From: Siphonodentalium dalli
Lineage: Eukaryota > Mollusca > Scaphopoda > Gadilida > Siphonodentaliidae
Length of the DNA: 64,000 nucleotides
Direction: 5' to 3'
Assembly (NCBI GenBank): GCA_032622095.1
Contig: CP136061.1
Location: 249,933,582-249,997,581, forward strand
Both the position numbers and the translations under genes were made by a program. Positions 461 through 31,879 of this stretch are shown piece after piece. Each line of letters begins with the position of its first letter. The first letter of the stretch is position 1. The notes beneath the pieces were generated by a model. It did no database searches. It was not told where the DNA came from and saw only the letters and a list, made by a program, of their open reading frames with translations.

Positions 461-484
461 GTTAAAATCTGAGTTAAGGAAAAA
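461..484 (-). promoter_or_regulatory. Cav1: U12-type (minor spliceosome) branch point and AC acceptor of intron 2
   Basis: On the minus strand the sequence TTTTTCCTTAACTC (471-484) matches the U12 branch consensus. The branch adenosine is at 474, 13 nt before the terminal AC at 461-462, inside the 10-15 nt window typical of U12 introns. There is no polypyrimidine tract and the intron ends AC, not AG, which pairs with an ATATCC donor. Confidence 0.9.
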
Positions 485-518
485 TAATGTAAAAACTGTG
501 AAATCTGAAAATATATAT

Positions 519-595
519 AAATAGATTACTATAATATTATTAATAAATAGATTATTATAACATTATTAATAAATAGATTATTGTAACATTATTAA
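519..595. repeat. 29-bp AT-rich tandem repeat, about 2.5 copies
   Basis: Units of the type aaatagattattataacatt followed by attaat, repeated with one or two changes, just upstream (minus-strand sense) of the U12 branch region of intron 2. Confidence 0.8.
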
Positions 596-1135
596 AGATG
601 GTCTATCTCTTTGTAAACATGTGTTATATAGTTACCGGGGTATAAAATATTAGATATGAATCGAAGAACCCTGTCCGGAAATGCTTCTATCGATTAATAT
701 TGATTATATTTTAAATATTTTCTGGTCTAAATACTGTGGTTGTTTAGCTAACAAACAAAAGTGGTTACTGTTAACAGAGACCAGAAATTTTATTGTTAAA
801 TTTTGACACAAATAAACAATAATTAGACTCATTATCGCTTATAAATATGGAATCAAACAATACAAACAATCAATCTGGGACATTTGACGTTCGGAGCATA
901 GATATGAGAACACCCTAATGATCTCTATTGCTGAATGGTCTGTTCTAAAAATAGAACAATAAAGTGTCCCATTTAATCATCTCATTTCGTAATAAAATTA
1001 TCGAAATAAAATCAATATTAATTAATAGAAGCATTTCCGGACAGCCTACAGGGGTCTTCAATTCATATTTATTATTTTATGCCCACGCAACTAATTCAAA
1101 TTTGTTATTTAAAGAGATAATCCATCTTTAATAAA
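596..1135. mobile_element. Long-TIR foldback element, ~540 bp
   Basis: Left arm (about 596-715: tggtctatctctttg ... ccggaaatgcttctatcg) is matched in reverse complement by the right arm (about 1005-1135: gaagcatttccggacag ... aaagagataatccatc). The interior is AT-rich and non-coding. The superfamily is not determined. Confidence 0.6.
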
Positions 1136-1185
1136 TGGATTAATATAACATTATTTCATGATATTTTCAAAATCTCTTTTCTAAC

Positions 1186-1467
1186 TTAACCCTTTCTATA
1201 CTAAATACTTTATTAATGAGTAATTCCCATAGCAAATGTTCAGATAATAAGTTCAACATACGACCATAGGTAGGTCGTTTGATGAACTTATTATCTGAAC
1301 ATTTCCCACCTAAGAATATGAATCCTTAACCACTTGTATTATCTTTTCGTCTGTCTGTTGTCTGCTTTTATTTCCTAATATTAACATCCCTCCAAATGAA
1401 TAATAGACCATTCCAATTAATATTGTTATAACTGATGGGAGAATCCATTCAGTATAGAAAGGGTTAG
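1186..1467. mobile_element. TTAA-bounded MITE, CCCTTTCTATACT subfamily
   Basis: Left end TTAACCCTTTCTATACTAAA mirrors right end AGTATAGAAAGGGTTA (TTAG at the end instead of TTAA). A hairpin around gttcagataataagttcaac (1230-1300) sits inside. Related copies are at 7568-7983 and 38721-38947. TTAA plus CCCT ends indicate piggyBac-like mobilisation. Confidence 0.7.
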
Positions 1468-1577
1468 CATAAATATACATGTATCTTATAAATGGCTAAA
1501 GTGAACATCAACTGTCCCAAGAGCGACATACGACAAAATCATAATTCTCAATTCATATAAAAAACACCTGTACTCAG

Positions 1578-1662
1578 GCTACATACATGTACATCACATT
1601 ATTACACACTTGTTCCCAGGCTACATACATGTACATCACATTATTATACACTTGTTCCCAGA
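1578..1662. repeat. 42-bp direct duplication (ACATGTACATCACATTATTA unit)
   Basis: Two near-identical units containing acatacatgtacatcacatt and cacttgttcccag. Confidence 0.8.
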
Positions 1663-1892
1663 AGAACAGTTTTATTGCTGTTCCATATCTGCAAATCTGT
1701 ACGGAACATACGTTCCATATGCAGCGTACATTCCATACAGGCATCTCGTTGATGTCAAATGACAACATGACGTTCGCTTCAACCGTGAAACCGGAACAAT
1801 AAAATAAAATCATCTTCACACAAGACAATACAAGCCCTGTATGTTCCTAAATAAACCTTGTAAGCCTGAAATTTTTAATGCACAGGTTATAT

Positions 1893-2260
1893 GACGTTGG
1901 ACTGTAATAAACACAGAACGACACGAGTGTTAATGGGTTTGTTGATAAGGCACTTGTGCCATCGTGGAAGGATAGAACGAGAGGTACAGCCTCAAGTTCT
2001 ATCCTCCATGCTAACACTCGTGCCATATCAACAACCCCATGCTAACACTCGTGCCATATCAACAACCAGATGCTAACACCCGTGCCATATCAACAACCCC
2101 ATGCTAACACTCGTGCCATATCAACAACCCCATGCTGACACTCGTGCCATATCAACAAACCCATGCTAACACTCGTGCCATATCAACAAACCCATGCTAA
2201 CACTCGTGCCATATCAACAAACCCATGCTAACATGTGTGTCGTTCTGTTTATGTACTGTA
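1893..2260. repeat. 30-bp tandem repeat (~7.5 copies) inside an inverted-repeat element
   Basis: Unit catgctaacactcgtgccat + atcaacaaac repeats from 2007 to 2230. The outer flanks acagaacgacacgagtgtta (1914) and acatgtgtgtcgttctgt (2231) are inverted, and a smaller hairpin lies around 1950-2015, so the array sits within a foldback element. A related hairpin without the array is at 23705-23785. Confidence 0.75.
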
Positions 2261-2473
2261 CAGTAATGACTTAAATAATCGACTCCTTAACTACAGCAGA
2301 ATTATGGGTAACTTTTCAGGATTTAGTCGGAAATATGGCTTGTTGACATTCATCGGAAAGCTCTCACTGAGAGCTTTCCGATGTATGGCAACAAGCCATA
2401 TTTCCGATTAAATCCTAAAAAGTTACCCATCATTCTGCTGTGGTTAAGGAGTCGATTATTTAAGGCATTACTG
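2261..2473. mobile_element. Family A foldback MITE (Tc1/mariner-like), copy 1
   Basis: Near-perfect palindrome with ends CAGTAATGaCttAAATAATC / GGCATTACTG, preceded and followed by TA. The arms contain ccacagcagaattatgggta-type and ggaaatatggcttgttgcc-type blocks meeting at gctctcaCTGAGAGC. It abuts the tandem-repeat element on its left. Confidence 0.85.
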
Positions 2474-2597
2474 TATGCTAATATTCAAGGAGAGCTTGTG
2501 ATCAGGGCTCAAAATGTATATCTATCCACCTGCCACAGACAGGTCATTTTCAGGGTGAGAGGTAGATTTCTGTGCTACATATGACAGACGAGTCTGT

Positions 2598-2742
2598 CAA
2601 GTTTACTGTGCCTGTCATTTGCAGAATGAGGTCCCAAGAGGGTGAATTTGGTGATACCAGTCCACTATGCAGGATAACATCACTAAATTCACCCTCTGGG
2701 GACCTAATTCTGCAAATGATAGTCACACTAAACTCAGACTTG
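2598..2742. mobile_element. Family B foldback MITE, short form, copy 1
   Basis: Palindrome with caagtttactgtgcctgtca ... aactcagacttg ends and the gcagaatgaggtccc / ggtgaatttggtgat arms of this family. Confidence 0.75.
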
Positions 2743-2760
2743 CCTGTCTCCTGTGACAAA

Positions 2761-2898
2761 CAAGCCTTGAAATAGCGTGTCTGTCATTTGCAGAATGAGG
2801 TCCCCAGAGGGTAATTTGGTGATGCTAGCCCACTATGTGGGGTAGCATCACTAAATTCACCCTCTGGCTCTGGGGACCTCATTCTGCAAATGACAGAA
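2761..2898. mobile_element. Family B foldback MITE, short form, copy 2
   Basis: Starts caagccttgaaatagcgtgt; arms meet at ctagcccactatgtggggta. The right end is truncated after atgacaga. It sits 18 bp from copy 1 in the same orientation. Confidence 0.75.
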
Positions 2899-3009
2899 TG
2901 ATTGTGATGATTCATCATAGTGAAATAAAACATGCAGGGTGCAAGGCTCAAAATAATAATTTTTTTACTGACTGTCAAAATGACAGGCACCAAATGGATG
3001 GTGTTGGTC

Positions 3010-4355
3010 ATTTCAAAATGGTACCTGTCAAATTTTCAGATGTACTGTATGAGACAGTATTTAAATTTCCAATCGACTTATTATTCGTCTATGATGCACA
3101 CATTTTAGTGAGCGTCCAATTGCCACCTAGGAAAAAACCATGTTATATTTGTTTTCAAAAGTTTGATTAGTAAATACATATGCAATTCGGCATAATTATA
3201 TTCACTTTGAATTGATCTGAAATTAAAAAAAAACTATTTTTTACTTTCAATGTCTATTTGGCCAGAAGTGGCTCCTTGGACAGATACAGATTGTTTAAAG
3301 AATTGCATTGTACAAAATGTCCGATAGATACAGAAGTGCACTGGAGTCGAGTGACTGGACATAAGCTATTTTTTTAGCCATGGCAGGGTGTAAGGCAGGG
3401 AATTGAAGTCGTGGGTGTACTAACAAACTCATATACACTTTGCCAATAGATATCAACCAATAAAAATAGCTAACAGGATCTGCAGTATATAACAAACTCC
3501 TCTGAGCATAATTTCCAATTAGTGAAAAACAACGAAAAATGAAAAGACAACATAGGCATAATAGCAAAATTACTTCTCGCCGTTATTTGAAGTCACCTTT
3601 GTTGCTCGGTTCTCTGTGTGAACATCAGGGGTCTAATGTAATTCTGTCGATCAAATCCCATTGGATAACTCATTCTAACGATGAATTCCCATTGGTTTAG
3701 CCTTCAAACAACAGCCTAATAGTTGTCATATATTCATATTCTGTGGAGACAGCGAAGAGCAGTTATTTAAATATAGTACTGCAATAACAGACTCCCTAAA
3801 CAACTGAACATATATCACCAGAACATTGTCTGAGTAAAATGGAAAAAAAATCTCGTTGATTATTCTATCATAGAGGTGGTAGCTCCTGATGTTTAATGGT
3901 TTCAGTGTGCGTCAGAGGTAATCCGCTTACATCTTGTAAGAATGGTGAATCAATCAAGTTTGCTAATAGGTCAATGATAAGAACATAATACCATGGAGCG
4001 GCTCGAAGTTAGAATTATAGAAACATGGATGATATAGACAGAACATAACGCACATCTTAATCGAGAATCTTTACTCGAATGAGTTGCAGAAGCACAAGGA
4101 TATATTTCACGAAAGCGGAGCTTGAGCGAAATGTGAATATGCGCCATCTGCAACAAATTAGATAAAAGAACAAATTATGATGCAAGTTGTGTTGTATTTA
4201 TTCCACACCCCATGTGTCGGATAAGTTTAATCCATGAATGTGACCACATTTGAAGCTATAAATACCTTTTATAATGTGATTAATGTCGGATGAAAAAACT
4301 AGTAATTATCTGTGCATCGCTTGGAGCGGATTGTTGTCATCATCGCTTTTGTCGT
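3010..4355. other. Intronic stretch, no gene or repeat recognised
   Basis: AT-rich unique-looking sequence. Open frames here are short and lack any family resemblance. Confidence 0.6.
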
Positions 4356-4361
4356 CAATGC

Positions 4362-4458
4362 GAAATAGATGCGGCTTGTGTTCCCTATATGGTGAAATAG
4401 ATGCGGCTTGTGTTCCCTATATGGTGAAATAGATGCGGCTTGTGTTCCCTATATGGTG
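4362..4458. repeat. 32-bp tandem repeat, 3 copies
   Basis: Unit gaaatagatgcggcttgtgt + tccctatatggt, almost identical copies. Confidence 0.9.
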
Positions 4459-4491
4459 AACAACATTATGTATACAATGGCTGGGATTACC

Positions 4492-4770
4492 TTGAATACA
4501 TGTGCCTCGCAGGTGTGGAATAAGAGAGCATATTAACTTACATGTGCCTCACAGGTGTGGAATAAGAGAGCATATTAACTTTGAATACATGTGCCTCGTA
4601 GGTGTGGAATAAGAGAGCATATTAACTTTGAATACATGTGCCTCGCAGGTGTGGAATAAGAGAGCATATTAACTTTGAATACATGTGCCTCGTAGGTGTG
4701 GAATAAGAGAGCATATTAACCTTGAATACATGTACCTCGCAGGTGTGGAATAAGAGAGCATATCAACTTT
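4492..4770. repeat. 47-bp tandem repeat, 6 copies
   Basis: Unit ttgaatacatgtgcctcgca + ggtgtggaataagagagcat + attaact, with a shorter second copy and C/T variation at the CTCGCA/CTCGTA site. Confidence 0.9.
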
Positions 4771-5019
4771 GCATATATTACTTCATTTGTTATGTACATG
4801 TACACGTAATTTGGGAAGAATACCAAACCATACTACATGTATGTCCTTCCAGAAGGGACCAGCCTCGACGTTAGAGACCATGCAGCCAAGAGTTTTTAAA
4901 TTGGGAGAAGCCACTTCTCCATATGAATTATTTGGGAGAAGTGGACTGTTTATCAGGGAGAAGTCATATTGGCCCAAGTTCAATTTACACCCCAACATCA
5001 CCCTTCTGTGATCCGGTAA

Positions 5020-6130
5020 GTATTATGCATGCAACACAGGAGCCTGTTTATACATGTAAAACCATTGTAGTGAGTAACAACACCATTATAATCAGTAAAT
5101 ATACTTTAAATATGCTGTTGGAACATATGCATACTGGTATATGAGAGAGTCACCTCTCCCTGTGACAAAATAGGGAAAACTGGCACATTTTACAATGAAG
5201 ATATCTCCCAAGCTGCCCTCTGGGCTGGTCCCTGTCTACCAGGACTATTTCCAGAATATGGATGACAGATTGTCCAAAAACACAACATCTAAATATATGT
5301 ACACATATTATGGCTTGTGCACACAAAATATGGAGCATGTTTTGCTTGTGTATATCTCACATACATGTATAACCATGTGTAAAATACAAAGGCTACCAGC
5401 ATATGGCCACTGTTCAGCAGATATTGAACAGGTTTTGGAGGCAGAGGAGAATCAGGTTATAAGAAGTAATTTTCTACTGGGATGCTGCATTGCAATAACT
5501 ACAACAGTTTTCCAACGGAAACATGATTGCGGCTAGAATTGGAACCTGTAAATTTACACTAAAAGAAAAACAATAACAGTCAGGCCATTATAGATAAATT
5601 AGTAGATTCTCTACTAACCTTTTTTTTTTAATTTGGGCGGGAGGGTAAATTGTTTTTATTCTTGCTAATATAAAAGGTCATGATCAGTTCTAGATATACA
5701 TGTATAAGTAGTATCCTACCTTGTACAGAACATTAGTGATTTAAATTACCAATTGGGATAAAATTAATTACACTGATTAAATGTACTTTGAAAGCCGAGG
5801 TATGACCACAAAAACTTTCTAATCCTTTCCACTTCAGCCACCCCTCCTTCCTTCACTTATTGAAGGTAGAATATAAATTCACCGCAGAGGAGCTGACTTA
5901 ACAAAAGAAATGTGTGTTGTCTAATCCACTATCCTCTATTTCCATACACCATCAGCATATTCCACTGTATCATTGTATGTACTAATTTATGTATATTATC
6001 TGACATTCCGATTTGGAAATAAAAATATGTTTAAACCAAGATATGAGAGAAAAAGTTTACATAAAATTTATCGAAAAAAAAAAATTGAGGGGGACCAAAA
6101 ATAGGGTCCAGAGGGGATGATAATCCACCA
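5020..6130. other. Intronic stretch, no gene recognised
   Basis: Contains a degenerate ggcccaagttcaatttacac block (4970-5010) also seen near 39490, otherwise no recognised structure. The 113-residue frame at 5195-5536 has no known-family features. Confidence 0.55.
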
Positions 6131-6139
6131 TTTTTCTAA

Positions 6140-6399
6140 CAGTAATGCCCTAATTAATCGACTCCTTAACCACAGCAGAATTATGGGTAACTTTTCAGGA
6201 TTTAGTCGGAAATATGGCTTGTTGCCATTCATCGGAAAGCTCTCCCAGAGAGTCGGAAATATGGCTTGTTGCCATTCATCGAAAAGCTCTCGGGGAGAGC
6301 TTTCCGATGAATGGCAACAAGCCATATTTCCGACTAAATCCTGAAAAGTTACCCATAATTCTGCTGTGTTTAAGGAGTCGATTAATTAGAGTATTACTG
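6140..6399. mobile_element. Family A foldback MITE, copy 2, with partly triplicated centre
   Basis: CAGTAATGCCCTAATTAATC / GATTAATTAGAGTATTACTG ends. The central segment tcggaaatatggcttgttgc occurs an extra time (about 6243-6295), so the element is longer (260 bp) than the usual 213 bp. Confidence 0.85.
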
Positions 6400-7234
6400 T
6401 ACCTCAATTTATTTTTATATTTGAGTAAAACTTATCATATTCAAACGTCTTGTGAAATAATTCATGAGTAATCCTGCTATTTGTAAATTGTTGTGGTGTT
6501 GATGCATACTTTTATTTATATTTTTTTTCCCTCCTGCACAGTGTCCTGCAAATACTTTTTTGCCAACCCAAATGTTCGTAACCAGACTATTTATTGTTGT
6601 GGCCCTATGAAGACGCAGACATATATTGTAGAGTTTTTGGCCGAGGAGAATTAGGTTGTAGGAACATACATAAGTTTATGGAGTCTGGAGGTAGGAATGC
6701 CAGCTATGATGGTTCATGGGAGTGTGTACACTCAACTTCATACAATTTGATTGCTAATCAACAGCCACCTACACAATATTTAAATCTTTTGGAACTCATC
6801 CATATTCTTAGAATGCAAACTGTGTATTGAGGATAAATAGGCTACACTGTTCCAAATAACCCAATAACTTGTTTTTGAAGAAGAAAACACATAGCATATT
6901 CTCAGACAATATTAATCAATCAAACTTCATTACCACTAAAAATTTCTGTTTGCTGTAATGGCAATACAAACAGAAGAAGAATGAAATTTTTAATTGTTCT
7001 TAATTGATATCATATTATATGACATATGTGGAATATATACCAGGTACAGCAGGGTAATAGTAGATCTTATAATGGCATACATCTGAATCTATATCTGGAT
7101 CTGACCCTGATCAAGTGAATGATCGAACTTTGGACAATATACTTACCCCACAGTACACCCCACTCGGTGCACTCAGCATTAAGTACACCAAGCTTGGGTT
7201 GACTACAGGTAAGGTACATGTGTGGCCCCATGTA
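6400..7234. other. Intronic stretch, nothing firmly recognised
   Basis: A splice-acceptor-like ctcctgcacag ends at about 6542, but the frames that follow (6543-6830) resemble no family I know and each is short. Confidence 0.5.
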
Positions 7235-7448
7235 CAGTAATGCCCTAAATAATAGACTCCTTAACCACAGCAGAATTATGGGTAATTTTTCAGGATTTAG
7301 TCAGAAATATGGCTTTGTTGCCATTCATCGGAAAGCTCTCACTGAGAGCTTTCCAATGAATGGCAACAAGCCATATTTCTGACTAAATCCTGAAAAATTA
7401 CCCATAATTCTGTGGTGGTTAAGGAGTCAATTATTTAGGGCATTACTG
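7235..7448. mobile_element. Family A foldback MITE, copy 3
   Basis: Full-length palindrome with TA on both sides; centre gctctcaCTGAGAGC. Confidence 0.88.
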
Positions 7449-7567
7449 TATAATTTACAACACAATAAATGTCACCCCATATCTTTTGCTACATAGGATT
7501 CAGACAATTTTAAGGTGGTATGCAGGATTCATACCCCTCTCTGTTAACTGCTACTCATATGTCCAAT

Positions 7568-7983
7568 CTAACCCATTTTACAGTAAATAGTCATTGACGA
7601 GTAGTTCCCACAAGAAATGTTCAGATATTAAGTTCAAATATCAAGGATTTCCTGTCATAAAGGAGACCAACATGGATCGAGCTGCTATTGGGAAGCCTAT
7701 CCTTATCAATAATATAATCGCTTTCTATACTAAATACTCATTGACGAGTAGTTCCCTCATTAACCCTGTCTATACTAAATTAAATACTCATTGAGGAGTA
7801 GTTCCCACAGGAAATGTTCAGATATCCAATGAATATGAATCCTTCAACACTTAATTGATTTATCTGTTCCTATTCTGCTGTCAGCTAATATTACATGAAC
7901 ATCCCTCCAAATGAATAATGGACCATTCCAATGTATTTATTTATGACTGAGTGGGAGAATCCATTTAGAATATAAAGGGTTAA
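7568..7983. mobile_element. TTAA-type MITE, CCCTTTCTATACT subfamily, rearranged copy
   Basis: The left end ctaacccattttaca is degenerate; the right end is tataaagggTTAA. The internal segment actcattgacgagtagttcc is present three times, suggesting nested or tandem copies. Confidence 0.6.
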
Positions 7984-8040
7984 TGTGGTGCAGGATATTG
8001 TCACTAAATTCACCCTCTGGGGACCTCATTCTGCAAATAT
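7984..8040. mobile_element. Family B fragment (right arm only)
   Basis: gtcactaaattcaccctctg + gggacctcattctgcaaat, without a matching left arm. Confidence 0.7.
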
Positions 8041-8089
8041 CCAGCACCATGTTTTTGGGCCTGACCTCAATGCATCTTTCTGGGACATA

Positions 8090-8303
8090 CAGTAATGCCC
8101 TAAGTAATCGACTCCTTAAGCACAGCAGAATTATGGGTAATTTTTCAGGATTTAATCGGAAATATGGCTTGTTGGCATTCATTGGAAAGCTCTCACCGAG
8201 AGTTTTCCGATGAATGGCAACAAGCCATATTTCCGACAGAAATCCTGAAAAATTCCCCATAATTCTGCTGTGGTTAAGGAGTCGATTATTTAGAGCATTA
8301 CTA
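8090..8303. mobile_element. Family A foldback MITE, copy 4
   Basis: Full-length, more diverged; right end GCATTACTA, then CAGTATT. Confidence 0.85.
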
Positions 8304-8477
8304 CAGTATTCGTATATGAAGGATTTCAAGTATTTATTGACCTATTTTAAAACCAGGAAAAATACAAAAGTGAATATTATTAGGTAGAATTTTGAGAGCA
8401 AACCAAAGTGTTTTAACTCAAAGAGCTAATACAATGTAAATATAAGTTCCTTTGATGGAAGTTAATGGATATATAGG

Positions 8478-8936
8478 AAGCCTGCAAATAGTGTTTCTGT
8501 CATTAGCCGAATGAGGTTACCAGAGGGTGAATTTAGTGATGCTATCCCACACAGTGGGCTAGCATCACTAAATTCACCCTGTGGGAACCTCATTCTGCTT
8601 TGGCCTCATCTTCTGGGAAGTATCTATAGTCTGAAATTAACATTTGTTTTTATATTTAGTTACTTTTTCCCTTCTGTTCTGTTTCTATATCCCCTAATTT
8701 GCAGAAGATAAAATGCATAATTGAGGTGCGCAATGGGTGAACATCATTAACTTCAACTGCAGAATTTCAATCTGATCCTAGCTAGGACTGCCATAGCAGT
8801 TGAGGCCTAAGCAGAATGAGGTTCCCAGAGGGTGAATTTGGTGACACTATAAAACCCACCTTGCAGGATAGCATCATTAAATTCACCCTCTGGGGGACCT
8901 CATTCTGCAAATGACAGACGCACTATTTGCAGGCTT
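8478..8936. mobile_element. Family B element, long form
   Basis: Ends aagcctgcaaatagtg / cactatttgcaggctt. Short foldback blocks at both sides (8510-8590 and 8812-8910) enclose a ~220 bp interior (cctcatcttctgggaag ... gaggtgcgcaatgggtgaac). Flanks atatatagg / atatacagg could be an imperfect target duplication. Confidence 0.75.
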
Positions 8937-8939
8937 ATA

Positions 8940-10110
8940 TACAGGAGTGGATGGGAAGCCTTGAGTAACATATGTATCAGACCCCATTAATAACATGGGA
9001 GAAAAATCAATAAAGTAGCAGAAAAAAACCAGCTCTTCCTTTCATAGGAGCAGGTCGCTCCAATACATGACAAGAGAGATGTCCCAATAGATTGAGAAGT
9101 CAATGCCAGCTAAACTGATTTACTCAAGTCAAATATTCTTGGGGTTTCTGCTGAAGTTTGGAGTGTGTGGATAACAGGCTATTAAACATGTTGTGTTGCC
9201 CCTGGGCCAAGGTGGCTGATTTGAAAATTCTTTCTAAATAACTATTTTTGTACTGGCCTAATGTTAGTCTGCAAGACCTTAATATTAAGGGTCAGGGGTG
9301 TAGTTGCAACTTAAATATTTGGTTGCCTGATCTGTCCATATAAAATCATTCACATACATGTATATTGCATTGTATGTCAGTGGCCAAATTGGCCAATGAG
9401 CCATTTTATTTCATAAATTACCCTACCTCAAATCGCTCAGAATATTTCACTTTAATGCTTCTAACTCGCAAGGAAATATTCTGAGCGATATGAGGTAGGT
9501 ATAATTTACTCATAAAATTACAACTTGATAAATTAATTTTGTTATTTTTTCTTGTAAAACGGCCCAAGAAAATTATATTTTTTTGGCCAAAAAGTTTCAA
9601 TTGTCATCAATCACCTCTCAAAGTATCAGATCACTGTGAAACTCTTAATCCATTATCAGGTTATCAGCAGTTTCTGGCCTGTGTATGTTCCATTCAGTTG
9701 AGACTATCTAAAATTATCATCTGGAAACCAAAAGGGAATGGACAGATGGACAGAGCAATAACATAATACGTTCCCATTTTTTTTTAAATAGGTGTATAAA
9801 AAGTGAAATGGCTAACTCATAAATGTACCAAATGGTATTATGACCTCCTAAATGTACCAGATGGTATTATGATTGATGGCGGCAACAGTGATGAATTAAT
9901 ATTACGAAGTTCAGGTGTTAACACCACATGGTCTAACTTGATTATGAAGCCATTTCCAGTACCTACCAGCATGGGATAATAGGGATAAAGGATTGCATAT
10001 ACTGGTATATTGAGTAATATATGCTAATGGATTAATTGATTCTCTCCAGATACTCAAGACTCATTATAGATTTCCAAAGGCTTAATTTACATGTAGGTCA
10101 AAACGACCTA
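8940..10110. other. Intronic stretch with one small hairpin
   Basis: An inverted repeat of about 35 bp (9418-9452 versus 9470-9502; cctcaaatcgctcagaatat) lies inside. Otherwise nothing is recognised. Confidence 0.55.
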
Positions 10111-10323
10111 CAGTAATGCTCAAAGTAATCGACTTCTTAACCACAGCAGAATTATGGGTAACTTTTCAGGATTTAGTCGGAAATATGGCTTGTTGCCATT
10201 CACCGGAAAGCTCTCGGGGAGAGCTTTCCAATGAATGGCAACAAGCCATATTTCCAACTAAATCCTGAAAAGTTACCCATAATTCTGTTGTGGTTAAGAA
10301 GTCGATTACTTAGAGCATTACTG
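10111..10323. mobile_element. Family A foldback MITE, copy 5
   Basis: Full-length 213 bp; CAGTAATGCTCAAAGTAATC ends, centre ctcggggagagc. Confidence 0.88.
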
Positions 10324-21856: not shown

Positions 21857-21863
21857 ATAAATG

Positions 21864-22092
21864 CTATAACACCATGGTTGTGAAACAGGTATCTATTGTT
21901 TCAACTTGAAATACAAATTGAAAGAATTAGGATATATCACATGCAAATGGTTTGTGTTCTTATTGCTATATCTCCCATCCTTTTGATCCCCTGGTCCTCA
22001 TCCATGTGACATGTGTCCTAATTCATTCAATTTGTATTTCAGCTTGAGACAATAAATACTTGCTTCACAACCATGGCATTATAGCAATTCTT
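21864..22092. mobile_element. Foldback element with ~85-bp arms
   Basis: Left arm tgctataacaccatggttgt ... gaaagaattagga is mirrored by tcctaattcattcaatttgt ... caaccatggcattatagca. No coding potential. Confidence 0.75.
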
Positions 22093-22338
22093 TAACCACA
22101 TGATACACAAAGGATATAATAACCAGGAAGCCAATGCAATGCATGAGAAACAAAACCGAGTGTGCATGCACCTGCCAACAGCATGCAGGACTTCACTCCC
22201 CATCACAGAGAATATCAGTCTGTGTGATGTACATTATGTAATTCATAAGGCGATAAATTAAAGGGGAACAATTATTATGAGCAAAGCACAATATCGAAGA
22301 AATGTGCGACCTTGTAAATTGTAGGTGAAATATATGAA

Positions 22339-22445
22339 CAGTAATGCCCTAAGTAATCGACTCCTTAACCACAGCAGAATTATGGGTAATTTTTCAGGAT
22401 TCAGTGAGAGCTTTCCGGTGAATGGCAACAAGCCATATTTCCGAA
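22339..22445. mobile_element. Family A foldback MITE, truncated, joined to a family B fragment
   Basis: CAGTAATGCCCTAAGTAATC to atggcaacaagccatatttc, then a switch to aagttcacaaatggtgaata (family B interior). Confidence 0.75.
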
Positions 22446-22499
22446 AGTTCACAAATGGTGAATATTGTGATGTACACCCATTGGGAACCACCAACCTAT

Positions 22500-23038
22500 T
22501 GACCGAATATTTCTAAGTCGAAAAAGGGGAATAACTCCACAAAAAAAAGTTGGACAGACATCATAATCGCAGGTGCACAGGTTCCCATGGTACTAAATAT
22601 CAGGGCCAAGATTAAAAAACATTGACCTAAAAATGTAGGAATAAAACCTCGGACAAAATTATGCATGTTGCAAAAAATATTCTAAGTCGAAAAAGTGTGA
22701 TAACTCCACCAAAAAATGTTGGACAGACGTCATAATCCCAGGTGCAAAGGTTACCATGGTACTAAATAACTGTGCCGAGTTTAAAAACATTGACCTAAAA
22801 ATGTAGGAATAAAGGTTCTGACAAAATTATACATGTTGCGAAAAAGGGGGGATAACTCCACCAAAAAAAGTCTGACAGACGTCATAATCACAGGTGCACA
22901 GGTTCCCATGGTGGTTGATGTCTGTGCCAAGTTTCAATGAAATTGATAACAAAAATGACTGAGAAAAACTCCGGACAAATTTTTGTCCACGGATGGATGA
23001 CGGACAACGGATGGACAAGCTGATTCGTTGCGGGGGGT
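22500..23038. repeat. ~170-bp tandem repeat (3 copies) ending in a GTCCACGGATGG block
   Basis: Units share gtcgaaaaaggggaataact-like, ttggacagacgtcataatc and ggttcccatggt segments at about 22506, 22676 and 22838. The end is tccggacaaatttttgtcca, cggatggacaagctgattcg, then gggggtataaaa. It interrupts a family B element (22446-22499 and 23039-23213). It is probably a non-autonomous transposon with an internal array. Confidence 0.65.
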
Positions 23039-23213
23039 ATAAAAAAAGAAATAGAATCTATGTGAAGAAATTTCTATAGAAATTTGATAATAGAGAAACT
23101 TTGCAGAGAAGATGAGGCCTAAGCAGAATGAGGTCCCCAGAGGGTGAATTTAGTGATGCTAGACCTCTGGGGAAGTCATTCTGCAAATGACATTCACATT
23201 CAACTCAGGCTTG
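23039..23213. mobile_element. Family B element, right part
   Basis: agaaatagaatctatgtgaa interior, then gcagaatgaggtccccagag and the right arm caactcaggcttg. Confidence 0.7.
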
Positions 23214-23786
23214 GTTCTCCATAGAAGATATACCCCGGGATATAACAAACAGGAAGCCAACTCAATACATGAGTTTGCATGCACCTGCCGACAGCATGCG
23301 TGACTTCACTCCCCATCATGGCTTATCAGTCTGCGTGACTTCACTCCCCATCACGGCTTATCAGTCTGCATGATGTACTTTATCAGGCGATAAATTAATG
23401 GAGAAAAAATAGTGTGAGCAAAGCATAATATCGAAGAAAAGTGCGACCATGTTGCAGATTAAATGTCTAGAGCGTTTTTTAAGTTTTTTACAATATCTGG
23501 ATTGTTTCAGGAGTCTTTTAGCATTGGAAACATCAGTTTGAGAATACCACAGGAAACAATTATTAAAGTTATATTAAGCAAACAAGGGCAATGAGCCAGG
23601 AGGGTGGAGGGTGGGCAGAACTTCCAGGAACGCCATGCTTTTTGGTCATAGCTGAATCAGAAATACAATGTACATAGAATGACATCAGTGTGTGAACAGG
23701 GTTGTCGTTGCGGCACAAGTTCAAGGGTGGAAGGGTAGAATGAGAGATGCAGCCTTGAGTTCTAACCTTCTGTGATGGCACAAGAA

Positions 23787-24144
23787 CAGTAATGCCCTAA
23801 ATAATCGACTCCTTAACCACAGCATAATTATTGGTAACTTTTCAGGATTTACCGGTAGTCAGAAATATGGCTTGTTGCCATTCATCGGAAGCTCTCACTG
23901 AGAGCTTTCCGATGAATGGCAACAAGCCATATTTCCAGCTAAATCCTGAAAAGTTACCATAACCACAGCAGAATTATGGGTAATTTTTCAGGATTTAGTC
24001 GGAAATATGGCTTGTTGCCATTCATTGGAAAGCTCTCACTGAGAGCTTTCTGATGAATGGCAACAAGCCGTATTTCCGACTTAATCCTGAAAAATTACCC
24101 ATAATTCTGCTGTGGTTATGGATTTGTTATTTAGGGCCTTACTG
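23787..24144. mobile_element. Fused double family A MITE
   Basis: It begins CAGTAATGCCCTAAATAATC, runs through one complete hairpin to gaaaagttaccat, then enters a second hairpin at aaccacagcagaattatggg and ends CTTACTG. It is 358 bp, against 213 bp for a single element. Confidence 0.85.
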
Positions 24145-24171
24145 TATGGTTTTGATAAACCCATTCACACT

Positions 24172-25005
24172 ATACAGTTGTCGCCCGCTGTCGAGGGAGA
24201 CATTGAGATTTGTCACCCGCTCGAGAACGGAATGTCTCCCGAGGAGCGCAGCTCCGAGGGAGACATTCCGTTCTCGAGCGGGTGACAAATCTCGATGTCT
24301 CCCGAGAAAAAGGGCAACAACTGTTTTGTTATCCGATTATACCACAGGAAAAAAATCCTTGCCATCCACACGCACGATGTTGCGAGTGCTATTTTCCCCG
24401 ATTATGTATATTTTCAGTAACTACTTATCATCCTATAGGATTTCTCTTCCATAAACGATTGTCAAGCCGTTAAGCGTTTGATAATCAGCGTTTAGTTACG
24501 ATGATTTTGGTGGTAAAATCGTCAATATCGGTCCATGCAATGTAAACCAATAAGCCATAAGGTATGTTATCGCCTTTTGCAATGTGGCATATTCAATATT
24601 CGCGACAAACGTATGCATTACGTTGTCCACCAGCAAACATTTATAACCAACCAACCTCAAGGGATCCACTCTTTCAATCTTGCATCATAATGTCGACATG
24701 AACATATTGAATCACCGAGATGTTTCGATGTAAAAAGGACATAATAACGCTTGTCCGATAAAAGTATCAACTTAAAAGTTCGAATATTAGTGTTCCTTAA
24801 ATATATGCAAATTAGCAAACACCACAACTGGTGTGTTTTGCGAATCCGTGGGGTATATAAGATCTATGATTTTTTAGTACATCGTAGTGATGTGAAATAG
24901 GTGAGTTACTGCAGTGTGTGTTTGGAGATATTCTTGCAATATAACGCCAGGCGGGCGACAAAAACAATGTCTCCCGGGTCAGCGGGCGACAGTGTGATTT
25001 GTCGC
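24172..25005. mobile_element. TIR element with GTCGCCCGCTG ends and internal long hairpin
   Basis: Left tcacactatacagttgtcgc + ccgctg pairs with right cagcgggcgacagtgtga. A second palindrome at 24192-24308 (gagacattgagatttgtcac ... gtgacaaatctcgatgtctc) lies next to the left end. The interior is AT-rich with no transposase. Confidence 0.65.
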
Positions 25006-25088
25006 CCGGCACGTGACAGCACATGGGCCAATCAGAAGGGTGGAAAATAGGGAGGAGGATAACAAACATGTTTGTTTCAGCATGCATT

Positions 25089-25133
25089 CAAGCCTACAAA
25101 TAGTGTGTGTCTGTCATTTGCAGAATGAGGTTA
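25089..25133. mobile_element. Family B end fragment
   Basis: caagcctacaaatagtgtgt + gtctgtcatttgcagaatga, then lost. Confidence 0.65.
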
Positions 25134-25558
25134 CCGCAGTAAATAATAGGTTGTCAATATTTTAAATATAGAGACAAATATGTCACCAGATCTAACATAT
25201 CTATCTACAATGCTATATAGATCTGTTCCTTATAGTATTACAGGTAACTCTGGTGATAAAAGTGACATCGCCATCAGCTTTAATGGACTGGTGTTCGGTG
25301 AGAGATTTATATTACATATGTACTCCTGCTCCATAAACCCAATCAATTATTTCAGCAAGCTACTACAGTTAATGACCACAGGATAATAAGCCAATATTCG
25401 TAACCCAAGATCTATGTACTGCTAAGGATGGATTTCTTCTTATGTCTGCTATGCCAGACAGTGGGTATAATCCACCTGCTACTCTGACAGATGTATGGTA
25501 AATGTACTTATACCACCAATCAATGTAATACTGGCAACATAAAGCCCACAGCTCAGCT

Positions 25559-26108
25559 ACATGGTTCATACATCTACCTTTGAACAAAATTCCAAAACTT
25601 TTCCATACCTTTTCCAGACTTCCTGATCATTTTTTCAAGACTTTTCAATGAACAAATTCAATAACTTTCCCATACGTCACATCAGGGAATTTGAAAAAAA
25701 AATTGGGAAAGACTTTACAATTTCCTTATTTTGAAAAGGTCACTGGAATTAGTGTTCGAATTATAGGAAGATGAGTAGCTATTGTGTTTACCATCCATAA
25801 AGTCTACGCTTTTATATGTTTTCATGGTTGATCACCGTGGCCTCCCCCATGTTTGCTGCAGTGATATATTATCCCTGAACAAACAGTTGCCAGTCATTTA
25901 GACATCATGTAAGTAATCAGCACTGCATGATATTTTATATTATTCCATGACTTTTCAAGACCTTCTCCCAGTCCCCCACCAATTTTCAAGACCTTTTCCA
26001 TAACTGGGTGAGAAAAGGTCCCATTTTCCAGACTTTTCAAGGGTATGGAAATCAAATTTTCGAATTCCATAACTTTTCCAGGATTCCAGACCCGCGTATG
26101 AACCCTGA
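25559..26108. mobile_element. Non-autonomous element with GGGTTCATAC ends (hAT-like?)
   Basis: The right end in reverse reads cagggttcatacgcgggtct; the left end reads catggttcatacatctacct. Both halves are rich in inverted ttttccagactttt / cttttcaagac blocks. Flanks share only agcta, so the TSD is uncertain. Confidence 0.5.
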
Positions 26109-26289
26109 GCTATTAAAGATGCTCTTTCTCTTCTGGACAACACATCCAACAACAACAACAACATTTCTTGGATACTCCTTTTCAAGACACCTTTCAATGA
26201 ACATGACCAGAAATGAGGGTTTCCTCTATAGAGGCAGCATGTCCCATTTAGAAACAACTGGTGTTATACGTATTTCATTCAAAAGTGTT

Positions 26290-26692
26290 TTAACCCTTTA
26301 CCCAACAAAACGCCCAAATAAAGCTTCAACAGCCTAAAATATCTTCGGTCTGTCTCAATAACATCATACCAATATGGATATCATTGGAACCGGTTCATTG
26401 ACCACATTGTGATGGTTACAGTTATGCCCTGTGGTCGCCTCGCATATATAAGAGAATGCATTGGCCTAAAAAAAAATTATAATTTTTTCTTGCATTCTTT
26501 AACAATTTTATAATTTGTTCTTACATTTTTTAACAACTTTTATAATATCTTTCTACATTCTTTGACAATTTTATCATTTTTAATATGTGTTAAGCCAATG
26601 CATTCTCTTATATATGCGAGGCGACCTATGGTCGACTCGCATATATATGAGAATGCATTGGCACAGGGCCGTTCTGTTGGGTAAAGGGTTAA
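26290..26692. mobile_element. TTAA-bounded piggyBac-like element, CCCTTTACCCAACA family, copy 1
   Basis: TTAACCCTTTACCCAACA at the left and TGTTGGGTAAAGGGTTAA at the right. Inside are a caacagcctaaaatatcttc leader, two hairpin modules (first one half-deleted), and a tcttacattttttaacaa linker array. Confidence 0.88.
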
Positions 26693-26868
26693 GAGATATA
26701 TTTCCAATAAAAAATGTTGTAATGTTTTAAGAAATTAAAATTAGCCAAATTTTCTTTCTAAATTTATAGAAAATTATTGGAGCAATTTCTCACCATTGTA
26801 TAAGAATCCTTTTGCACTTGCATTATCGGTCTGTCTGTCATCTGCTCATTTTCTATGAGCACCTCTCC

Positions 26869-27014
26869 CAGAAATATGGCTTGTTGCCATTCATCAGAAA
26901 GCTCTCCCCGAGAGCTTTCCGATGAATGGCAACAAGCCATATTTCTGACTAAATTCTGAAAAGTTACCCATAATTCTGCTGTCGTTAGGGAGTCGATTAC
27001 TTAGGGAATTACTG
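26869..27014. mobile_element. Family A foldback MITE, left end truncated
   Basis: Begins inside the left arm (agaaatatggcttgttgcca); complete right arm to GGAATTACTG then TA. Confidence 0.8.
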
Positions 27015-27113
27015 TATGTACCTCTAATGATGGATTTCTTACATAATGTTTATAAAATCACTAAATTTATTACCAGGCTTGTTTAGAGGGCCCTGAGAGA
27101 ACCCAGTCACTTG

Positions 27114-27367
27114 CAAGCCTTGAAATAGTGTGCCTGTCATTTGCAGAATGAGGTCCCCAGAGGGTGAATTTAGTGATGCTACCCCGCATAGTGGGCTAGC
27201 ATCACCAAATTCACCCTCTGGGGACCTCATTCTGCTTACACCTCAGCAGAATGAGGTTCCCAGAGGGTGAATTTGGTGATGCTAGCCCGCTGTGCGGGGT
27301 AGCATCACTAAATTCACCCTCTGGGAACCTCATTCTGCAAATGACAGACACACTATTTCAAGGCTTG
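27114..27367. mobile_element. Family B foldback element with perfect 8-bp TSD (reference copy)
   Basis: CAAGCCTTGAAATAGTGTGC ... ACTATTTCAAGGCTTG, flanked by gtcacttg at 27106-27113 and 27368-27375. It holds two hairpins in tandem, both with gcagaatgagg / cctcattctgc arms. An 8-bp duplication is the hAT superfamily hallmark. Confidence 0.88.
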
Positions 27368-27387
27368 GTCACTTGATCAGATAGATT

Positions 27388-27900
27388 ATGTCATGAATCT
27401 CTGCACTGGTTAACGCCCATAGAGATCATATAGTACCATCAGTACAAAACCTGGGAACTGTTTGAAGTTTTGACAGGGAACCTTATGAAGTTGAACAAAT
27501 AACGCGGGGAATATAACGTATGTCTTAGTTGGGGTTCCTTAATAATATACTTCACTGTAGGTGAAGGTCCTGACTAAAATTTTTACGATTTAAGTGACTT
27601 TGTGAGCAGTTTTGCTTTGCGTCGCTTACGCTTATAGAATTTCTCCTTGGTAATTAATTCAATGTTTATTGCGATATCGTCTCAGAAAAATCACAGAAAA
27701 GCATGAAATTTTGAGTTTGGACCTTCACCTTCAGTGAAGTAGATTATTAAGGAACAGATAATCTTTAAGAAATACATTCCCCACATTAAGTTATTGAATT
27801 TATAAGGTTCCCTGTCACAACATAAAAAAATTCCCAGGTTGTGTACTGGTGGAATATGATCTCTATGGGCGTTAGCCAGAGTAGAGATTCATGGCATGAT
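27388..27900. mobile_element. Long-TIR (~160 bp) foldback element
   Basis: catgaatctctgcactggtt and gcccatagagatcatat at the left mirror atatgatctctatgggcgtt ... gagattcatg at the right. The arms extend inward to cttcactgtaggtgaaggtc / gaccttcaccttcagtgaag. The ~100-bp loop is non-coding. Confidence 0.75.
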
Positions 27901-28755
27901 CTATGGATTAGAAAATGTGCATTCATTGCTTCATATGTGTGTGAACAAATGATCAATTCTTATCAAAATGGCCATATTACGATCGGAATATATAAAATAA
28001 AGAATGCTATTCTCAACAACACACCAACAGCTTAAACTTTAACTCAATTCAGAAGCTTTCTATATTTGTCATGGTAACTATCCATATAGCTGCTGAATTT
28101 GAATGAACTATATTTGACTCTTCTAGAATTGATAGAAACCCAAAAAGTCACATTCTAAAATAAGAACAAAGAAAATTCAAATTGAGAAGCCTGAAAACTG
28201 CCACTCAGACCTTTTACAAATTATCTCTAATATTTTCTTCCGGTGAGAGAAGAAAAACTACTATGTGAGACCTAGGATCAGACTGATGTTATTTTCCCAG
28301 TTGAATTTGGTGATGTTCACCCATTAGTCACCTCGATTATGCATTTTATCATCTGAAAATTAGGGGATATAGAAACTGAACAGGAGGGGAAAAGGTAACT
28401 AAAATAATGTTAATTTCAGATTATAGACATACAGTCAGTACCGTAATACCCTACCATCGATCTACATGTATATTTAATACGATATCCATCGATGACCCAA
28501 CCAAGCTTTCATACTAACATTGAAGCAATAAAATATAACAATAGCTTAATTTCCTTTACCACCCTACTGACATTTATTGTCCTTGCACTTTTGTCTGAGA
28601 TAAAAGAGTAATCTAATTTTCTGTCAGAGGGAATTGAATTTATATATAAGTACTCCGTCAGAGAGAATTGAATTCATATATAATTATTCCGTCTTCAGGG
28701 AACCAAAAACAACCGCAGAATACATAAATTCCTGAAGAAGGGACAAATATGTCTA

Positions 28756-29548
28756 CAAGCCTGAATTTAGTGTGTCAGACATTCCCAGAGGGTGAATTTA
28801 GACTCGCTATCCCGCACATCGGGCTAGCATCACCAAATTCACCCTCTGGGGACCTTATTCGGCTTAGGCGTCATCTTCTGTGAGGTATCTATTTAAGTAA
28901 TGGATGTTGACTTTGTTGCGTTCCATAGAGTATGGATGCAAGTTGGTCTGACATTTTGTGTGGCATCCGAAAGGTTTCCACACATAAAAATGTCAGACCG
29001 ACTTGCATCCATACTCTATGGAATGCAACAAAATGAACATTCATTACTTATATTTACACTCAAATGAGTCAACTGGAAGATTAGAATAGCATAAAGCACC
29101 AATTTCCAATGTTATTCTCATGACTTGATGCAAGTTGCATCTACACAAAAATGGATGCAAGATGGTGTCAGCACGCGACGTCATGTGACGTAATTTCGAC
29201 CAACCAACGTCCTGCATTCATGTTCCACAAAGCGAATGCATGTGTGAGTGTAAATATAGTCTCATATTAACATTGTTCTTAGTTTACTTTTTCCCTTCTA
29301 TTCAGTCCCCTACATGTACACGTAATATTCAGAACATCAAAATGCTTAATCGAGGTGACTGATGGATGAACATCAACAACTTCAACTGGGGAACTTCAAT
29401 CTGATCCTAGGTCTCATATAGCCACAGTGCTTAGCAGAATGAGGTCCCCATAGGGTGAGTTTGTTGACGCTAGCCCACTGTGCAGGATAGCACTACTAAA
29501 TTCACCCTCTGAGAACCTCAAAAGACAGAGACACTAAATTCAGGCTTG
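28756..29548. mobile_element. Family B element, long form, carrying another foldback insertion
   Basis: caagcctgaatttagtgtgt ... cactaaattcaggcttg. Flanks tatgtcta (28748-28755) and catgtcta (29549-29556) are a 7/8 TSD. The interior is interrupted by the palindrome listed at 28890-29275. Confidence 0.78.
28890..29275. mobile_element. Foldback insertion nested in a family B element
   Basis: Strong palindrome ttccatagagtatggatgca / tgcatccatactctatggaa about 28950-29030. Outer segments tttacactcaaatgag and gtgagtgtaaatat are inverted. Exact ends are unclear. Confidence 0.55.
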
Positions 29549-29723
29549 CATGTCTACAGTAATTTAATTTTTTGAATTCTTGAGTAATGGATGATGAAAT
29601 CAAATTGTGGCCATGAATTTTCAATGTTACTTTCTGCGAAGAAGAATATCATTATGTTAGCTCCAAGCCGCGATTTTGAAAGACTAAATTTGGGAGAAAT
29701 TACTTATCCATATAGCATCGCCT

Positions 29724-30113
29724 TTAACCCTTTACCCAACAAACCGGCCAAATAAAACTTCAACAGCCTAAAATATCTTCGGTCTGTCTCAATAGAACCA
29801 TACAAATATGGATATCATTGGAACCGGCTCCTTGACCACATTGTGATAGTTACAGTTATGCCCTGTGCCAATGCATTCTCTTATATATGCGAGTCGACCA
29901 TAGGTCGCCTCACATATATAAAAGAATGCATTGGCCTAAAAAAAATCTTTTTTTAACACTTTTTACCATTTATTCTTACATTCTTTAACAATTTTATAAT
30001 TGTTAACGTGTTAAACCAATGCATTCTCTTATATATGCGAGGCGACCTATGGTCGACTCGCATATATAAGAGAATGCATTGGCACAGGGCCCTTCTGTTG
30101 GGTAAAGGGTTAA
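29724..30113. mobile_element. TTAA-bounded piggyBac-like element, CCCTTTACCCAACA family, copy 2
   Basis: Both TTAA and 18-bp ends present; two hairpin modules of opposite arrangement (29868-29936, 30015-30083) with an AT-rich linker. Confidence 0.9.
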
Positions 30114-30164
30114 CAGAATAGAGAAAGAGATGGGAAGTCACACCAAAAGTTAGCTCACCGTCAC

Positions 30165-30290
30165 CCAACTACGGACTACATTAAGGTGGTAACTGGACTT
30201 CATATTGGTTAACTTCGGTGATCACACAATAACTGTGATGCATGGAGCCCCTCATGTGGGATACACGAAGTGTTATCATTATTTTCTTAA
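30165..30290. repeat. Degenerate 5S-like repeat
   Basis: ggttaacttcggtgatcaca with cgtcacccaactacggacta upstream, i.e. the same box C to box A order (minus strand) as at 17600-17656 but much decayed. Confidence 0.4.
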
Positions 30291-30385
30291 ATCTAGAGCA
30301 GATAAGTAATCGTTCCTCCATATTCACCGTGACAACTACACTACATGTACACTTTAAGATTCACCAGATCTCATTCTGAGTCCTC

Positions 30386-30849
30386 TTAACCCTTTACCCA
30401 TCAGAACGGCCCTGTGCCAATGCATTCTCTTAAATATGCGAGTTGACCATAGGTCGCCTCGCATATATAAGAGAATGCATTGGCTTAACACATATTAAAA
30501 ATGATAAAATTGTCAATGAATGTAGAAAAATATTATAAAAATTGTTAAAAAATGTAAGAATTTTTTTTTAAATTGTTAAAGAATGTAAGAAAAAATGGTA
30601 AAAAGTGTTAAAAAAAGATTTTTTTTAGGCCAATGCATTCTCTTATATATGCGAGGCGACCTATGGTCGACTTGCATATATAAGAGAATGCATTGGCACA
30701 GGGCATAACTGTAACCATCACAATGTGGTCAAGGAGCCGGTTCCAATGATATCCATATTTGTATGGTGTTATTGAGACAGACCCAAGATAATTTAGGCTG
30801 TTGAAGCTTTATTTGGGCATTTTTGGCCGGTTTGTTGGGTAAAGGGGTT
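30386..30849. mobile_element. TTAA-type piggyBac-like element, CCCTTTACCCAACA family, copy 3 (inverted)
   Basis: TTAACCCTTTACCCatcaga left; right gttgggtaaaggggttg has lost its TTAA. Modules run in the reverse order to copies 1 and 2. Confidence 0.85.
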
Positions 30850-31018
30850 GTACAAGGTTTATTCAGGCACAGACAGGGCTTGTTTTGTCATTTGAGATGA
30901 TGCTTTTATGTTATAGTCATTTACTTTGTGTGACGCCAATGTAATGTGTACGCCACTTGTGGGTCATACGAATTTGTAAATATTGCACAAGAAACATTGT
31001 AATTCTAGGAACAAGCGT

Positions 31019-31227
31019 GTAATAAATAGCATTACTGTGTAATGGTGTAGGGCCCTGCGAATCATTAATAAATAGCATTATGTGTAATGATGTAGGGCCC
31101 TGCGAATCATTAATAAATAGCATTATGTGTAATGATGTAGGGCCCTGTGAATCATTAATAAATAGCATTATGTGTAATGATGTAGGGCCCTGCGAATCAT
31201 TAATAAATAGCATTATGTGTAATGATG
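31019..31227. repeat. 45-bp tandem array that contains a hAT-like terminus in each unit
   Basis: Units tagggccctgcgaatca + ttaataaatagcattatg + tgtaatgatg repeat about 4.6 times and run directly into the element starting at 31228, whose first 17 bp are the same tagggccctgcgaatca. Confidence 0.9.
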
Positions 31228-31766
31228 TAGGGCCCTGCGAATCAGGCATTTTCATTTCGAATTGAATCAGGCAAATGATTCCGAATCGCATCGAATCATG
31301 GCATCAGACGTATCAATAGTGAAAATGATTGTAGATATCACTTGACTGAGTGGCCGTACCGGTATCAATAGTGAAGATGATTGTAGATATCACTTGACTG
31401 AGTGGCCGTACCGGTATCAATAGTGAAGATGATTGTAGATATCACTTGACTGAGTGGCCGTACCGGTATCAATAGTGAAGATGATTGTAGATATCACTTG
31501 ACTGAGTGGCCGTACCGGTATCAATAGTGAAGATGATTGTAGATATCACTTGACTGAGTGGCCGTACCGGTATCAATTTGGTCACTTCGTAACAACGATA
31601 AGTGATTGTCAGTATATTATGTAAATATTATCCATAAATGGATCAAATTTGCATTTAACCAAATAAGTGCACATTCTTTTTTTGCGAATCAGGACAGCCG
31701 ATTTTTGAATCGAATCAAATCAGCCGAAAGAATCTGAATCGCATTGAATTGATTCACAGTGCCCTA
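31228..31766. mobile_element. hAT-like element, TAGGG(G)CCTGCGAATC family, copy 1
   Basis: tagggccctgcgaatcaggc at the left; gattcacagtgcccta at the right. Flanking taatgatg / aaatgatg (7/8). The interior has gaatcgaatca-type inverted motifs and a 52-bp tandem array. No transposase. Confidence 0.8.
31311..31576. repeat. 52-bp tandem repeat, 5 copies
   Basis: Unit atcaatagtgaagatgattg + tagatatcacttgactgagt + ggccgtaccggt, nearly identical; a single-copy relative is in the sister element (33610-33662). Confidence 0.92.
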
Positions 31767-31870
31767 AAATGATGATTGCATGTCTGCAACATATCTACAT
31801 ACATTGTACTCACTTGAAACCACCAACTTCTCTGAAAATGAAAATTACCAATGATAAACACTGGGATTAA

Positions 31871-31879
31871 AAAGGATAT
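31871..31879 (-). promoter_or_regulatory. Cav1: U12-type AT-AC donor site ATATCCTTT
   Basis: Immediately after the TGG AA of exon 2 the minus strand reads ATATCCTTTT, the U12 AT-AC donor consensus. No usable GT lies at the position where the coding match to exon 3 must break. Reading on without splicing gives YPF and a stop. Confidence 0.92.

What the first reader, a model, noticed from the sequence alone, without database searches (positions are those of the whole stretch)
461..31879. A 31.4 kb AT-AC (U12) intron splits the calcium channel at EWK|PFE
Exon 2 ends TGG AA and is followed at once by ATATCCTTT. Exon 3 begins G CCT TTC GAG and is preceded by TTTTAAC with a perfect TTTTCCTTAACTC branch site 13 nt away. 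Minor-class introns are known at conserved sites in voltage-gated cation channel genes. Here the minor intron has grown to over 31 kb and is filled with about a dozen transposon families. AT-AC introns are usually the rarest and most constrained class, so size and transposon tolerance are noteworthy.
Basis: partly seen in the sequence, partly recalled or inferred. Interest (0 to 1): 0.8.

Follow-up and report, generated by a model that had tools for sequence, protein, structure and literature searches.

The report
Conserved AT-AC intron, enlarged by repeats
An animal calcium-channel gene carries the rare type of intron that most animal calcium and sodium channels are reported to have at this spot; here it is 31 kb long and half repeats, which looks ordinary.

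Summary
On the minus strand, exon 2 of an L-type (Cav1) calcium channel ends at 31880 (…TGG AA). The intron opens with ATATCCTTT at 31879 and closes with TTTTAAC at 461, 13 nt after the branch A of TTTTCCTTAACTC. Exon 3 starts at 460 (G CCT TTC GAG). Of 12,100 cut pairs tried around the two ends, only AT-AC and its one-base slip TA-CG restore WKPFE; all 8 open GT-AG pairs lose EWK. So it reads as a U12-type AT-AC intron of 31,419 nt.

It is not a surprise. [quoted passage not shown] Minor-intron lengths track genome size and major-intron lengths. Self-repeats cover 50% of this intron, 40% of the next 23 kb upstream and 9% beyond that. None of 63 ORFs of 70 aa or more inside the intron hit Pfam, so the "transposon families" are better called repeat families. 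No transcript or relative was available. Verdict: real, correctly read, a further case of a known conserved intron.

The parts
355..460 (-). Cav1 exon 3 (106 nt), (K)[34 protein letters not shown], followed by a GTGAGT donor at 354-349
   Evidence: gapless match to Cav1 structures in the 4 alignments printed; no second copy in the window (next best tblastn hit E 0.22)
461..31879 (-). U12-type AT-AC intron, 31,419 nt, phase 2
   Evidence: only placement with recognised termini that restores WKPFE
31871..31879 (-). U12 5' splice site ATATCCTTT, 9 of 9 to consensus
   Evidence: consensus as printed
471..483 (-). U12 branch-site sequence TTTTCCTTAACTC; second A of TTAAC lies 13 nt before the intron end
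   Evidence: optimum distance 11-13 nt
461..467 (-). 3' splice site TTTTAAC
31880..32234 (-). Cav1 exon 2 (355 nt): N-terminus with a WxxxL NSCaTE-like motif ([11 protein letters not shown], then Met 5 residues on) and [27 protein letters not shown]2-type acceptor TTTTTTCTTGCAG in front
   Evidence: NSCaTE definition. The scripts started 3 bases too early, at 32237; the start 32234 is read
54891..54909 (-). tentative exon 1, MASQVT(G), donor GTCAGT; would make intron 1 22,656 nt
   Evidence: one of 6 candidates under a filter that demanded G as last exon base, which is an assumption; weak

Best explanation
This is the ancestral minor-class (U12-type, AT-AC) intron that animal Cav and Nav genes share just before segment S1 of domain I, here in the L-type Cav1 gene of an animal, probably a protostome. 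The minor spliceosome should remove it in one step: U11/U12 recognises ATATCCTTT and TTTTCCTTAAC, a branch A attacks the first base of the intron, and exons 2 and 3 join as TGG AA|G CCT, giving EWK-PFE. Shown from sequence: gene identity, junction, signals, frame. Inferred: that it is transcribed and spliced this way, and that the intron grew neutrally as dispersed and tandem repeats accumulated, as in the DNA next to it, while only the splice signals stayed fixed.
For: Joined exons match 42 distinct PDB sequences up to E 1; 41 are calcium or sodium channels (the other, GST2, has E 0.55); best is Cav1.3 (9e-28), then Cav1.1 and Cav1.2; the 4 alignments printed all run through VEWKPF without a gap. 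Of 12,100 cut pairs, 2 restore WKPFEYLI, AT-AC and TA-CG; 8 open GT-AG pairs all lose EWK. Joint chance of the two signals about 1e-9. Branch distance 13 nt, within the 11-13 optimum. Same site published as U12 AT-AC in Cav1, Cav2, Cav3, Nav1 and Nav2 and as often U12 AT-AC in L-type channels. Repeat cover 0.499 in the intron against 0.404 just upstream. Minor-intron lengths follow genome and major-intron size.
Against: No transcript, second species or whole genome was available (none held), so splicing and orthologous lengths are untested. The branch site (11 of 12) and the 3' end AAC depart slightly from the printed consensus. A second ATATCCTTT lies inside the intron at 22117-22109 on the sense strand. 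Repeat cover in 55265-64000 is only 0.091, so the load is not even along the window; the measure counts only repeats within the window. The site is not universal: passages say fruit flies kept few channel U12 introns, and list fly Ca-alpha1D with a GT-AG one (its position relative to this site not checked).
Confidence: 0.93

Rival explanations
1. The 31 kb is not one intron in every transcript: an alternative first exon or a cassette exon lies inside, so some isoforms use shorter introns.
For: [quoted passage not shown] A second perfect U12 donor 9-mer lies at 22117-22109.
Against: No Cav peptide duplicate in the window; none of 63 ORFs of 70 aa or more inside the intron hits Pfam; the 4 printed Cav alignments have no residue between K and P. 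Short or non-coding exons are not excluded.
Confidence: 0.1
2. The junction is spliced by the major spliceosome with GT-AG ends, or is a U2-type AT-AC intron.
For: 8 GT-AG pairs near the ends leave an open frame. U2-type AT-AC introns exist (SCN4A intron 21).
Against: All 8 GT-AG pairs delete EWK; 6 of the 8 add 3 to 15 residues before PFE and the other 2 delete PFE. The donor is the full U12 9-mer and a U12 branch site stands at the optimal distance.
Confidence: 0.01
3. Special mechanism: the long intron is removed in steps (recursive splicing or a nested intron), or pairing repeats bring the ends together.
For: Between the first and last 3 kb of the intron one search found 5 links, 3 of them inverted; one inverted pair, 67 bp and 84% alike, joins 1796-1862 with 30917-30851. 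A twintron is listed for fly prospero (that it nests a U2 in a U12 intron is recalled).
Against: No YAGGTRAG ratchet site on the sense strand (0, against 3 on the other strand). Inverted repeats are common in the window (627 pairs), so such a pair is unsurprising.
Confidence: 0.04
4. Assembly artefact or pseudogene.
For: Repeat-rich DNA with long tandem arrays and G runs can be misassembled.
Against: No N in 64 kb, open frames, intact signals at the four exon ends seen, conserved protein.
Confidence: 0.03

Closest known systems
U12-type AT-AC intron at domain I S1 of Cav1/Cav2/Cav3/Nav1/Nav2 (PMC6259924, abstract, passages and legends seen; Wu and Krainer 1999, not held, known only from citations)
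   Same: Same gene family, same place at S1 of domain I, same donor consensus ATATCCTTT, same class of branch site, AT-AC ends
   Different: Only the species and possibly the length; no lengths at this site were found in the passages read
Minor intron 2 of rat Cacna1c (PMC8767276, abstract and passages seen)
   Same: Cav1 gene with a minor intron numbered 2; loss of U6atac retains Cacna1c minor splicing targets (intron 13 is the one named as measured)
   Different: Rat; its length and exact base position were not in the passages read
Long minor introns, e.g. Hermetia illucens, median 4,019 bp (PMC10639083, section read)
   Same: Minor introns can be far longer than is typical
   Different: 31 kb is well above that median; maxima for single introns were not found

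Membership tests
U12-type (minor) intron | 5' splice site RTATCCTTT at the exon end | tested here: met
   ATATCCTTT at 31879-31871, 9 of 9
U12-type (minor) intron | branch site near TTCCTTRAC | tested here: met
   TTCCTTAAC at 481-473; 11 of 12 of the longer consensus
U12-type (minor) intron | short branch-to-3'-end distance, optimum 11-13 nt | tested here: met
   13 nt from the second A of TTAAC, 14 from the first (range)
U12-type (minor) intron | 3' end YAS (a preference; one search names the 5' splice site and branch site as the defining features) | tested here: not met
   AAC: AC is met, Y at -3 is not
U12-type (minor) intron | removed by U11/U12/U4atac/U6atac | not testable with these tools
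   no RNA data, no genome held to look for the snRNAs; Rfam found none in the window
U2-type AT-AC intron | U2-like donor ATAAGT (recalled) and no U12 branch site | tested here: not met
   donor ATATCC, U12 branch site present
conserved Cav/Nav D1S1 minor intron | position between N-terminus and domain I S1, at EWK|PFE | tested here: met
   the published figures were not seen, only their legends, so identity to the base with other species rests on the text
L-type Cav1 | best match Cav1 over Cav2 and Cav3; NSCaTE motif WxxxL with Met downstream | tested here: met
   Cav1.3/1.1/1.2 chains E 9e-28 to 1.5e-24 for the long chains (trimmed constructs down to 1.9e-15), Cav2 5.9e-15 to 2.5e-9, Cav3 0.004 or worse (aligned to a later domain). 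Motif in exon 2 (definition). Pfam Ion_trans is below its cut-off (16.7 against 25), with only profile positions 2-31 of 241 covered

The most novel reading that the evidence does not exclude
This is one of the longest AT-AC introns in any invertebrate and needs help, such as pairing of repeats or stepwise removal, so that its length tunes Cav1 output.
Probability: 0.05. Interest if true: 0.45.

Novelty: new member of a known kind. Interest (0 to 1): 0.15.

Why it matters
It adds one clear case in which an ancient minor intron keeps its splice signals while its body fills with repeats to 31 kb. That fits published surveys in which minor-intron length follows genome size and is not capped by the minor spliceosome. 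It changes no current view.

Tried and rejected
GT-AG alternatives: enumerated and rejected. A hidden or duplicated Cav exon: tblastn of exon 2 and exon 3 peptides gave the exons themselves; next best E 0.22 (top 25 hits seen). Genes or transposon proteins in the intron: one search lists 63 stop-to-stop ORFs of 70 aa or more that lie wholly inside it; 60 scanned and the other 3, no Pfam hit at E 0.01; ORFs that cross the exon ends were not scanned, and shorter pieces could be missed. Recursive splice sites: none on the sense strand. RNA families: 0 matches in the window at gathering scores. Relatives in viral contigs: none by protein or by a 25-base repeat motif; no collection of animal genomes was available, so the species and the length in relatives remain unknown. 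Length of the same intron in print: searches (0 papers; 0 papers) gave no length for this site in what I read; the papers listed were seen as listings only, except PMC6717393, PMC10639083 and PMC7367187, read in part. GTRAGT is 3 on the sense and 9 on the other strand of the intron; too few to claim depletion. The idea that the minor intron is specially repeat-rich was dropped: 0.499 against 0.404 just upstream, though 0.091 further on. Upstream coding exon 1: 7 candidates with GTRAG donors in 32238-64000 and 6 under a donor score plus a last base G; none is convincing.

Full report
What is there. The gene lies on the minus strand. Exon 2 (31880-32234) follows a normal acceptor TTTTTTCTTGCAG and ends …GTG GAA TGG AA. 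The next base, 31879, opens ATATCCTTT. At the other end TTTTCCTTAACTCAGATTTTAAC runs to 461 and exon 3 starts at 460 with G CCT TTC GAG. The intron is 31,419 nt. Exon 3 is 106 nt (355-460) and is followed by GTGAGT.

Which gene. The joined exons read …[61 protein letters not shown] search of the PDB gave 42 distinct sequences up to E 1, of which 41 are calcium or sodium channels and one (GST2, E 0.55) is not: best Cav1.3 (9e-28), then Cav1.1 and Cav1.2, then Cav2 (5.9e-15 to 2.5e-9), then Nav (0.0005 or worse) and Cav3 (0.004 or worse). So this is Cav1. Exon 2 also carries [11 protein letters not shown] with a Met 5 residues on, which fits the NSCaTE motif described for L-type channels of protostomes and vertebrates (passages of PMC3634016). 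The species was not identified.

Is the AT-AC reading forced? I tried 121 donor by 100 acceptor positions (12,100 pairs). Two give WKPFEYLI: AT-AC, and the one-base slip TA-CG. Eight GT-AG pairs keep an open frame; all lose EWK, which stands without a gap in the 4 channel alignments printed. So the protein alone points to AT-AC, before any motif is considered.

Is it more than chance? Scanning 64 kb for the motifs is not convincing by itself: RTATCCTTT 2 found, 2.03 expected; TTTTCCTTAACTC with up to 2 mismatches 2 found, 2.43 expected; TTCCTTRAC followed by AC 2 found, 0.62 expected. At the places that the protein fixes, the joint chance is about 1e-9 under a first-order model, with the caveat that the motifs were chosen after the site was seen. 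Two small misfits: the branch site matches 11 of 12 letters of the printed consensus, and the 3' end is AAC where YAC or YAG is usual.

How it most likely works. Donor, branch site, 13-nt distance and lack of a pyrimidine tract after the branch fit removal by the minor spliceosome (criteria from passages of PMC3584512). The sequence is shown; the splicing is inferred. Work on rat heart cells shows that U6atac loss causes minor intron retention in Cacna1c and lowers Cav1.2 (abstract and passages of PMC8767276), so output of this gene plausibly depends on minor splicing too.

What fills the intron. Self-comparison marks 49.9% of the intron as repeated, against 40.4% of 32235-55264 and 9.1% of 55265-64000; the measure sees only repeats with a partner in this window. 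Of the 25 clusters of at least 80 bp printed, 19 have a segment in the intron; 12 of those have two or more segments and 7 are single segments that match themselves. The two largest clusters make up about 60% of the repeated bases in the intron (7,123 and 2,305 bp of about 15,700). The largest merges at least two short palindromic families (D4-D6 and D10). No RNA family was found in the window, and none of the 63 ORFs of 70 aa or more inside the intron hit Pfam at E 0.01. They look like non-autonomous elements and tandem arrays, but I could not name them. A tandem repeat begins at 517, 34 nt from the branch motif, and the 31020-31684 cluster ends 195 nt from the donor. Constraint therefore seems confined to the ends.

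Is the size special? The DCP1 gene starts on the other strand near 55.4 kb, which probably bounds the upstream part of this gene. A tentative exon 1 at 54891-54909 would give a major-class intron 1 of 22.7 kb, the same order as the minor intron; this exon is one of 6 weak candidates, found with a filter that assumes G as the last exon base. In print, mean U12 intron length correlates with genome size at r 0.87 across 24 genomes (section of PMC7367187 read), and median minor length with median major length at rho 0.903 (section of PMC10639083 read). In mouse and human, short minor introns are the ones more often retained and long ones the ones more often alternatively spliced (passages of PMC6717393). 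So 31 kb in repeat-rich DNA is long but not strange; whether it is long for this site is open.

What is known of the site. [quoted passage not shown] PMC3634016 (passages) says the N-terminus of L-type channels ends at an often U12-type AT-AC junction. PMC2831892 (passages) lists calcium-channel U12 introns in fly and human, among them a GT-AG one in fly Ca-alpha1D and an AT-AC one in the fly T-type gene, and says flies kept few of them; I did not check which of these lie at this site. For length I found nothing in the passages read.

Verdict. Real, correctly described, and a further case of a known, deeply conserved minor intron. Not tested: transcripts, species, lengths in relatives.

Noticed in passing
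55265-55714 (+): First coding exon of DCP1 (mRNA decapping enzyme 1; Pfam DCP1 E 2.2e-10, PDB DCP1A E 4.6e-9), ATG at 55418 or 55442, head-to-head with the Cav1 gene.
   Followed up: partly
54891-54909 (-): Possible Cav1 exon 1 (MASQVT, donor GTCAGT) about 0.5 kb from the DCP1 start, which would suggest a shared promoter region. Weak.
   Followed up: partly
58486-60752 (+): Retrotransposon reverse transcriptase (RVT_1) split over two overlapping frames, so broken; perhaps in a DCP1 intron.
   Followed up: partly
56455-57765 (+): Two ORFs (172 and 182 aa) that resemble a MULE-type transposase from memory; no Pfam or NCBIfam hit.
   Followed up: partly
22109-22117 (-): A second perfect ATATCCTTT on the sense strand inside the intron; may be a silent decoy U12 donor.
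   Followed up: partly
1796-1862 and 30851-30917: Inverted repeat (67 bp, 84%) near the two ends of the intron that could pair in the pre-mRNA; unsurprising in such repeat-rich DNA.
   Followed up: partly
40060-43056: Tandem arrays of 19-, 57- and 41-base units, about 3 kb, upstream of exon 2.
   Followed up: no
36908-37303 (-): Fragment with a zf-RVT-like match (E 3e-5, below the Pfam cut-off): perhaps a remnant of another retrotransposon.
   Followed up: no
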